From positions 51,974 through 115,973 of the forward strand of contig JAQWUP010000029.1 of NCBI GenBank assembly GCA_029242085.1: a DNA stretch of 64,000 bases, read 5' to 3'. A program made the position numbers and the translations under genes. The stretch comes from Porticoccaceae bacterium (GTDB taxonomy: Bacteria > Pseudomonadota > Gammaproteobacteria > Pseudomonadales > Porticoccaceae). How positions within the stretch are numbered: the stretch's first letter is position 1; each line of letters begins with the position of its first letter. This document shows positions 7,692-62,242 of this stretch, piece after piece. The notes below the pieces were generated by a model, which was not told the origin of the DNA, made no database searches, and saw only the letters and a program-made list of their open reading frames with translations.

Positions 7692-7789
7692 AACCTGTAA
7701 GTCCTGTAATTGGTTGAGTGCAAACTATAACAGCGCCATCGATTAGTGCCATAATAACGCGCATTAAAGACCGCATTGCAGGTAAACCT

Positions 7790-8299
7790 ATGACCAATCA
7801 TTTAGTAGTAACCATTCTCGCTGAAGACCGCCCCGGCATTGTTGAGCAAATAGCCCAAACTATCATCGCTCACAGCGGCAACTGGATGGAGAGCAGTATG
7901 AATCGTCTGGCCGGTAAATTTGCGGGTATTCTGCTGGTCGAGGTAGATGCTCAGCACAACAGTCCGCTGCAAGAAGCCCTAATTGGACTCAGTGAGCATG
8001 GCATTACCATTACCGTTGAAGACAGCAAATATTTGGGGCAGCACGAGATACCGCTGTGCATTGAGATTATCGCCAATGATCGCCCCGGCATCGTCGGTGA
8101 AATTGCCGCGCAGCTGGCCAGTAAAAAGGTCAATCTCGAGTCTTTGGAAACCTTCTGTGACAGCGCGCCTATGTCTGCCGGTACAATGTTTCATGCCCAT
8201 GCCTATATTCAGTTGCCTGGGGGAATGTCGCAAAATGATTTAACATTGTTATTGGAAGGTCTATCCGATGACCTGATGGTCGAGATTGTAGATATTTAA
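7790..8299 (+). CDS. gcvR: GcvR-like tandem ACT-domain regulator
   Basis: A 169-residue protein with two ACT domains: [19 protein letters not shown] at the N-terminus and [21 protein letters not shown] in the second half. This is the layout of GcvR, which binds glycine and, with GcvA, represses the glycine cleavage operon in E. coli; whether that circuit exists here cannot be told. The ORF track begins at 7718, but the ATG at 7790 follows an AGGT and starts exactly at the first ACT strand. It reads into trmL with a 1-bp gap. Confidence 0.8.
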
Positions 8300-8300
8300 T

Positions 8301-8771
8301 ATGCTCGACATTGTTTTATACCAACCGGAAATCCCACCCAACACCGGAAATATTATTCGCCTCTGTGCCAATACTGGTTTCCGTCTACACCTGATCGAGC
8401 CACTGGGCTTTGATCTGGATGATAAAAAACTGCGCCGTGCAGGTCTGGACTATCGCGAGTTTCAGGACTTACAGGTACATGCCGATTGGCCCGCCTATCT
8501 GACTAGCGCCAAGCCTAAGGCCGTTTATGCACTGAGCACTAAGGGATCAGTCTGTTATTCAAAGGTCAACTACCAACCGGGAGACGCTCTGCTATTCGGC
8601 CCGGAGACCCGAGGTCTGCCGGAGAGTATTCGCACCGAGGTCGGTGCTGCAAATGTATTGCGATTGCCGATGCAGGCACAGAGCCGCAGCCTTAACCTTT
8701 CCAATACCGTGTCCATCGTGACCTATGAAGCATGGCGGCAGCTGGATTTTTCTATGACGAGTTCTCTATGA
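8301..8771 (+). CDS. trmL: tRNA (cytidine(34)-2'-O)-methyltransferase
   Basis: TrmL methylates the 2'-O of the wobble nucleotide in tRNA-Leu isoacceptors. The 156-residue SPOUT protein is full length: [18 protein letters not shown] at the start, then FGPETRGLP and [19 protein letters not shown] at the knot region, the SAM-binding trefoil of the family. Its TGA overlaps the ATG of the flavodoxin gene (ATGA). Along with mnmC two genes on, it makes this a wobble-position tRNA modification neighbourhood. Confidence 0.95.
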
Positions 8772-9307
8772 GTATAAAAATTGGTTTATTTTACGGTAGC
8801 TCTACCTGCTATACAGAGATGGCCGGAGAGAAAATTCGCGACCAGATCAATGGCCTGCTCAGTGCCGAAGTGGTCATTATGCACAATATTGCCGATGACC
8901 CTATCAGCCTGATGGAGGATTACAGCTATCTGATTTTAGGGATACCAACCTGGGACTATGGTGAGCTGCAAGAAGACTGGGAGACCCACTGGGATGAGAT
9001 TGATAGCCTTGATCTCAATCATGCCAGAGCGGCGCTCTATGGTTTGGGAGATCAAATTGGCTACCCAGAATGGTTTCAAGATGCACTGGGGTATCTCTGG
9101 GCCAAGATGGTTAATCAGGGGGCTACCACTGTCGGCGCCTGGCCTAATAAGGGTTATACCTTTGAGGATTCTAAAGCGCTGACCAAGGATAAAGCTTATT
9201 TTGTCGGCCTGCCTCTGGATGATGAAAATCAACTTGAGCTTACAGATGGTTTTATCAGCCTTTGGTGCGATCAAATTCTGATTGAATTTGGCCTTAAATC
9301 AACGTGA
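8768..9307 (+). CDS. fldB: Flavodoxin (FldB type)
   Basis: A 179-residue long-chain flavodoxin. The N-terminal [20 protein letters not shown] is the FMN phosphate loop in the form seen in E. coli FldB, followed by [17 protein letters not shown] (first isoalloxazine loop) and the [20 protein letters not shown] segment. Flavodoxins carry single electrons to reductases. The track ORF starts at 8732, but the ATG at 8768 overlaps the trmL stop and begins at the conserved N-terminus. Its TGA in turn overlaps the GTG start of mnmC. Confidence 0.93.
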
Positions 9308-61906: not shown

Positions 61907-62064
61907 ATAGACCCTGCATAGGCCCTTGGGATCGGTCCCATGGCTGCGACCATTTTCAGCGTTCGCACAACTCGCTTCGCTCAAACAGGGTGCTCTCTTT
62001 TTCTGAAAATGATCACAACCATAAACGGGCCCTGATTGATCCCAAGGGCCTATGCAGGATCTAT
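61907..62064. repeat. Long two-tier inverted repeat between recN and pnp
   Basis: Outer arms of 27 bp (61907-61933 and 62038-62064) match at 26 positions; inner arms of 20 bp (61940-61959 and 62003-62022) match at 17. The loop (61960-62002) contains CTCGCTTCGCTC. All four arm mismatches are C-A in plus-strand RNA but G-U in minus-strand RNA. It lies in the 376-bp convergent gap, outside the two terminators; a palindromic repeat element (REP/MITE-like) or structured RNA are the possibilities. Confidence 0.8.
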
Positions 62065-62166: not shown

Positions 62167-62194
62167 ATAGCCTCTGGGTATACCCAGAGGCTAT
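62167..62194. repeat. Perfect 28-bp palindrome
   Basis: ATAGCCTCTGGG-TATA-CCCAGAGGCTAT reads the same on both strands. It lies between the pnp terminator and the long inverted repeat. It could act as a bidirectional hairpin without a strong U-run. Confidence 0.85.
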
Positions 62195-62210: not shown

Positions 62211-62242
62211 AAAAAATCCCCAGCCAAGGCCAGGGATTTTTT
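62211..62242 (-). terminator. Terminator of pnp (possibly bidirectional)
   Basis: AAAAAATCCC and GGGATTTTTT pair around an inner GCC-AA-GGC stem. U-runs are present on both strands, so it can end pnp (stop 16 bp away) and also transcripts from recN. Confidence 0.88.

What the first reader, a model, noticed from the sequence alone, without database searches (positions are those of the whole stretch)
61907..62064. Long inverted repeat whose mismatches are all G-U compatible on one strand
Two nested pairs of arms (27 and 20 bp) carry four mismatches. Every one is C opposite A in plus RNA, which means G opposite U in minus RNA. That direction bias suggests the minus transcript folds and has been selected or recently copied as an RNA-like structure, for example a palindromic repeat element or pnp 3' region structure that could be a target of PNPase or RNase III.
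Basis: seen in the sequence. Interest (0 to 1): 0.65.

Follow-up and report, generated by a model that had tools for sequence, protein, structure and literature searches.

The report
Mobile hairpin element folding on one strand
The inverted repeat is one copy of an apparently uncatalogued, widely copied ~160-base hairpin element of SAR92-type marine bacteria whose shape is kept by matching changes on both arms of one particular strand; it probably spreads as folded single-stranded DNA, moved by an enzyme that could not be identified.

Summary
In detail: the 27-bp and 20-bp arms and all four C:A (plus) = G:U (minus) mismatches are there. The feature is one of 10 full copies in its own genome; 141 distinct copies were read, from SAR92/HTCC2207-type genomes and, with the same architecture, from other Pseudomonadales families.

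All helices covary: 95% of cells paired, 44 of 59 pairs with compensatory changes, slid controls 31-41%. Non-Watson-Crick pairs favour G:U on the minus strand 3:1 to 5:1 in three sets of copies, so the strand-bias hunch holds.

A pnp 3'-region RNA is not supported. Copies are dispersed between genes, empty sites exist, and different subfamilies and orientations occupy the same recN-pnp site. No promoter-like site was found at the window copy and nothing matched Rfam. The tip on the folded strand is usually GC-GNA-GC or GC-GNNA-GC, the rule for ultra-stable DNA mini-hairpins; its tetraloops are mostly not the RNA-type GNRA.

Best explanation: a non-autonomous mobile element recognised as folded single-stranded DNA, REPIN-like in manner but failing the defining tests of REP/REPIN. 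Y1/RAYT transposases neither co-occur nor co-localise with it, so the mobilising enzyme is unknown. An RNA reading remains possible.

The parts
61907..62064 (-). whole element; the minus strand is the folded strand
   Evidence: model R1 matches 61907-62064 full length on minus at 161.5 bits, plus only 46.7 (this copy was in the model's training set)
62038..62064 (-). 5' arm of the 27-bp closing stem (16 copy-specific bp + CCCTTGGGATC)
   Evidence: pairing stops at the same base in all copies; 24 of 27 pairs show compensatory changes
61907..61933 (-). 3' arm of the 27-bp closing stem
62033..62037 (-). conserved one-sided bulge AATCA (minus)
   Evidence: conserved in alignments A1/A2
62027..62032 (-). 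5' arm of 6-bp helix GGGCCC
   Evidence: compensatory changes in other copies; one mismatch column
61934..61939 (-). 3' arm of 6-bp helix GGGACC
62023..62026 (-). one-sided bulge GTTT (usually GCTT)
62003..62022 (-). 5' arm of the 20-bp inner helix, variable middle, conserved ATTTTCAG
61940..61959 (-). 3' arm of the 20-bp inner helix
61990..61993 (-). 5' arm of 4-bp helix GCAC
   Evidence: all four pairs vary with compensation
61965..61968 (-). 3' arm of 4-bp helix GTGC
61974..61980 (-). apical GCGAAGC mini-hairpin, flanked by GA on both sides (TGAGCGAAGCGAG)
   Evidence: GC-GNA/GNNA-GC on the folded strand in 112 of 141 copies, on the complement in 3; GCGAAGC is an extraordinarily stable DNA mini-hairpin (PMC4686876)

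Best explanation
A non-autonomous mobile element of about 160-200 bp whose minus strand folds, as single-stranded DNA, into one long rod: 27-bp stem, 5-nt bulge, 6-bp helix, 4-nt bulge, 19-20-bp helix, internal loop, 4-bp helix and a GNA-capped mini-hairpin. An enzyme supplied in trans would recognise the conserved bulges and tip on that strand and move or copy the element to new sites, in this genus mostly just behind the 3' end of a gene with the folded strand antisense to that gene. Shown: dispersed copies, empty and decayed sites, different subfamilies and orientations at one site, covariation, strand bias, orientation rule, DNA-type loop. Inferred: that the active form is single-stranded DNA, and that an enzyme binds it. 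The enzyme is unknown.
For: 10 full copies in the own genome and up to about 19 in relatives. Empty recN-pnp sites in 11 relatives, opposite orientations in G002/G018 versus G000/G017, decayed copy in G009. At a second site different species hold different subfamilies, one inverted, two empty, one with the hairpin deleted. Covariation 0.560 versus 0.171 shuffled and 0.06-0.10 slid, same structure de novo. Folded-strand G:U excess in all sets; folded strand more stable in 132 of 141 copies with DNA and with RNA parameters. Tip GC-GNA/GNNA-GC on the folded strand 112 of 141 versus 3 on the complement, exactly the published DNA mini-hairpin rule (PMC4686876), with tetraloops mostly GNYA, not GNRA. 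Orthologous copies of G017 and G018 lose pairs about as often as they keep them (9 breaks, 7 one-sided, 3 two-sided), as expected if the fold is needed for spreading and not at each locus.
Against: No mobilising enzyme found; Y1 transposases fail. The exact ends, any target duplication and an excised intermediate are not shown. In two complete genomes the folded strand is mostly the non-leading one (21 of 27), the opposite of lagging-template insertion as in IS608. The loop argument is indirect: GNA and GNNA loops can also form in RNA, and related copies are not independent.
Confidence: 0.55

Rival explanations
1. A structured RNA made from the minus strand: a small RNA, or an antisense 3'-UTR element that stops or processes transcripts entering a gene from its 3' end. 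The copies spread by some DNA route but are selected as RNA.
For: Covariation and one-strand G:U tolerance are the classical RNA signature. The folded strand is antisense to the gene on its 3' side in 65 of 76 copies, so transcripts entering that gene from behind would carry it. One subfamily has an extended -10-like flank TGCGATAAT just before the stem.
Against: No promoter-like site at the window copy, and the -10-like flank is missing in other subfamilies. No Rfam match. Tetraloops mostly GNYA rather than GNRA. Resident orthologous copies decay. Presence at a locus is not conserved.
Confidence: 0.28
2. A REP/REPIN-type element mobilised by a Y1 (RAYT, TnpA-REP) transposase, acting in trans or since lost.
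For: RAYTs act on strand-specific folded single-stranded DNA with bulges (PMC8266576), and REPIN hairpins show compensatory changes (PMC3116915). In G112 a Y1 gene has a short relative of the element on each side.
Against: R1 finds no element within 1.5 kb of the other 29 homologues of that Y1 gene. PF01797 is absent from G000, G001, G002, G004, G011, G012, G013, G017, G221, G241 and G254, which all carry elements. No conserved GTAG foot and no conserved ends.
Confidence: 0.08
3. No selection for structure: hairpin-templated repair (quasipalindrome correction) keeps the two arms complementary, mimicking covariation in an inert repeat.
For: Such correction is established for imperfect palindromes in bacteria (own knowledge) and would give long stems of arbitrary sequence.
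Against: Two one-sided bulges, the tip and the fixed 27-bp stem length stay constant across subfamilies although correction should erase bulges and move stem ends. The G:U excess is confined to one strand, and orthologous copies accumulate uncorrected breaks.
Confidence: 0.07

Closest known systems
REP and REPIN elements with RAYT (TnpA-REP) transposases
   Same: Dispersed intergenic palindromes, strand-specific fold with bulges, compensatory changes in the stem, copies as inverted pairs
   Different: Here the ends vary and the interior is conserved (REPINs are the reverse); no GTAG foot; no linked RAYT; a single 27-bp closing stem
IS200/IS605-type elements and their MITE derivatives
   Same: Hairpins recognised on one strand as single-stranded DNA; no need for terminal inverted repeats of a DDE type
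   Different: One full-length rod instead of two subterminal hairpins; no tnpA copy found; replication-strand bias opposite to lagging-template insertion
Other palindromic dispersed repeats (ERIC, NEMIS/Correia)
   Same: About 100-160 bp, palindromic, intergenic, multicopy, non-autonomous
   Different: Different sequence as far as recalled (not aligned here); none recalled with this strand-specific G:U signature or GNA tip
DNA mini-hairpins d(GCGNAGC)
   Same: GNA or GNNA loop closed by two G-C pairs (PMC4686876)
   Different: Known as an isolated stable motif; here it caps a long dispersed element

Membership tests
REP / REPIN (RAYT system) | Conserved GTAG-type tetranucleotide at the foot of the hairpin | tested here: not met
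   Foot differs by subfamily (AATAG, GCRAAG, AGCAATG, AAACCC) in 55 copies
REP / REPIN (RAYT system) | Two conserved inverted REP ends around a variable spacer | tested here: not met
   The outer 16 bp are the most variable part, the interior is conserved
REP / REPIN (RAYT system) | RAYT gene in the genome, flanked by the element | tested here: not met
   Y1 absent from most element-bearing genomes tested; 1 of 30 Y1 loci carries the element
IS200/IS605-type single-strand transposon | HUH transposase acting on the ends | tested here: inconclusive
   No linked Y1 gene found; trans-acting or lost enzymes cannot be excluded
IS200/IS605-type single-strand transposon | Active strand in the lagging-strand template | tested here: not met
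   Folded strand non-leading in 21 of 27 copies of G018 and G241, two copies at the skew boundary left out (assigned by hand)
Known structured RNA family (Rfam 15) | Match above the gathering score | tested here: not met
   None for the window; no element hit above gathering in own, distant or class-wide copies
DNA mini-hairpin | GNA or GNNA loop with at least two G-C pairs | tested here: met
   112 of 141 copies on the folded strand
Expressed small RNA | Transcript from the minus strand | not testable with these tools
   No RNA-seq available; no promoter-like site found

The most novel reading that the evidence does not exclude
A Gammaproteobacteria-wide class of elements moved as folded single-stranded DNA by an undescribed enzyme that reads a GNA mini-hairpin tip and one-sided bulges and places copies behind gene 3' ends, so that natural selection acts on the DNA fold itself and leaves an RNA-like covariation signature.
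Probability: 0.33. Interest if true: 0.8.

Novelty: new variant of a known kind. Interest (0 to 1): 0.6.

Why it matters
If true, a pattern normally read as proof of a functional RNA (covariation plus one-strand G:U tolerance) would be produced by a mobile DNA element. It would add a family in which the fold rather than the sequence is inherited, point to an unknown single-strand-acting enzyme in abundant ocean bacteria, and warn that genome screens for structured RNAs can report mobile DNA hairpins. If it is RNA after all, it is an apparently undescribed multicopy structured RNA with exceptional covariation.

Tried and rejected
A pnp- or recN-linked RNA: rejected, most relatives lack it there and copies occur elsewhere. 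Outer stem made from duplicated target sequence: rejected, subfamily stems such as ATAGNCCCTG recur at unrelated loci. Insertion into a pre-existing terminator hairpin: no support, empty recN-pnp sites lack the stem sequences. RAYT/Y1 mobilisation: tested three ways, not supported (a loose pattern gave one chance-like match near another Y1 gene). Phage or plasmid carriage: no hits with the window element or two distant relatives, no exact pattern match in viral contigs. A promoter common to all copies: only one subfamily has a -10-like flank. Known RNA families: none. Literature: nothing on the motif or on SAR92 palindromes in the held library.

Full report
Observation. One mismatch in the outer and three in the inner stem are all C opposite A on plus, that is G opposite T/U on minus. 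The minus strand folds at -94.5 kcal/mol as RNA, z -11.3; as DNA it gives -47.9 against -38.7 for plus.

Copies. The own genome (2.19 Mb, 91 contigs, 83% complete) holds 10 full copies and some fragments. Same-genus genomes hold from none to about 19. Titles of exact pattern matches name HTCC2207, MOLA455, SAR92 clade H231 and Porticoccaceae MAGs; this places the genus in the SAR92 clade, though no tool names the window's own organism.

Structure. Fifty-three copies were aligned in minus orientation (A2), with a structure read from matching substitutions. It has 59 pairs; 95.0% of cells pair, 44 pairs show compensatory changes, and the covariation score is 0.560 against 0.171 for shuffled letters and 0.06-0.10 for slid partners (31-41% paired). 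RNAalifold on the same alignment finds 56 pairs with the same helices unaided. Features: a closing stem of 27 bp in which pairing stops at the same base in all copies; a bulge AAUCA; a 6-bp helix; a bulge GCUU; a 19-20-bp helix with a freely varying middle; a 4-bp helix in which all four pairs vary; and a 2-bp tip helix.

Strand. Among non-Watson-Crick cells, G:U on the folded (minus) strand outnumbers A:C by 78:20 in the core and 51:13 in the outer 16 bp. Copies not used for the model give 105:22 (54 same-genus copies) and 45:14 (36 copies of other families). The model used to align these may favour G:U slightly, but a position-only count of the outer 27 bp gives 61:16 and 25:14. In 132 of 141 copies the folded strand is the more stable one, with DNA and with RNA parameters.

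DNA or RNA. The tip is GC-GNA-GC or GC-GNNA-GC on the folded strand in 112 of 141 copies against 3 on the complement. In other families, where a longer hairpin replaces the short tip, GCGNAGC often sits at the end of that hairpin. Ultra-stable DNA mini-hairpins are defined as a GNA or GNNA loop with at least two G-C pairs (PMC4686876). The tetraloops are mostly GNYA (GACA, GTCA, GATA, GCCA), where RNA would favour GNRA (established knowledge). This leans towards DNA without proving it; G:U tolerance alone cannot decide.

Mobility. Between recN and pnp the element is present in G000, G002, G017 and G018, in both orientations; G009 has a shrunken remnant; 11 relatives have little more than the terminator. 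At a second site, upstream of what looks like the RNase P RNA gene (recognised by eye, not tested), G018, G241, G004, G000 and G313 carry copies with different stems, one inverted; G221 and G002 are empty; G017 has a remnant with most of the hairpin deleted. In orthologous copies of G017 and G018 the differences break pairs 9 times, keep them by a one-sided change 7 times and change both sides 3 times. This suggests that the fold is maintained in the family rather than at each locus; the numbers are small.

Placement. In the folded orientation the gene on the 3' side is antisense in 65 of 76 distinct same-genus copies and 20 of 30 in other families, while the gene on the 5' side is random in this genus (40 of 76) (simple longest-ORF gene calls). 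Copies sit a median 100 bp (50 bp in other families) behind that gene's stop. In the complete genomes G018 and G241, GC skew puts the folded strand on the non-leading strand in 21 of 27 assignable copies (by hand). That is opposite to lagging-template insertion and counts against a simple IS608-type model.

Relatives. R1 finds the same architecture in several other Pseudomonadales families, up to about 19 copies per genome, and weaker partial matches sharing CTGTCTGAGCGNAGCGAGTT elsewhere in the class. Copies in G254 are nearly identical with unrelated outer flanks, as after recent spreading. No phage or plasmid record matched the queries tried.

Mobiliser. Y1 HUH transposases were the obvious candidate. 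They are missing from most element-bearing genomes of the genus that were searched. One Y1 gene in G112 has two short relatives around it, but R1 finds none at 29 other homologues. The enzyme remains unknown.

Verdict. The best reading is a mobile palindromic element selected for a single-strand fold, more likely DNA than RNA, like REP/REPIN elements in manner but failing their defining features.

Noticed in passing
window 62167-62194 and 62211-62242: A perfect 28-bp palindrome (ATAGCCTCTGGGTA/TACCCAGAGGCTAT, no loop) beside a two-way terminator-like hairpin with A- and T-runs downstream of pnp.
   Followed up: no
L333 positions 1135-1171 and many same-genus loci: A short, very abundant repeat TGTCATCCCGACAGAGCGNAGCGACGAGGGATCTC, often on the gene side of the element, carries the same GAGC-GNA-GCGA tip on the opposite strand and is identical over 36 bp between species.
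   Followed up: partly
L320 (G241:C1:2550000-2560000), positions about 7700-8850: That short repeat forms an array with copies about 91 bp apart in parts.
   Followed up: no
L247 (G017), recN-pnp intergenic region: A second, unrelated long palindrome with a ~29-bp stem (GGCTTACCTACCCTAACCCCCTTTCAAAAC) lies beside the element.
   Followed up: no
L123, L265, L271, L277, L327, L328 (family f45): Elements are flanked on both sides by inverted copies of a hairpin repeat GGGGACGGAGGCGGTCTACGTCCCC.
   Followed up: no
L011 / L360, end of contig G000:C26: The closing stem continues as a perfect inverted repeat for about 28 further bp up to the contig end; possibly an assembly fold-back.
   Followed up: no
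L323, L325, L329, L130, L015, L069: Copies often come as back-to-back pairs between convergent genes, one behind each gene.
   Followed up: partly
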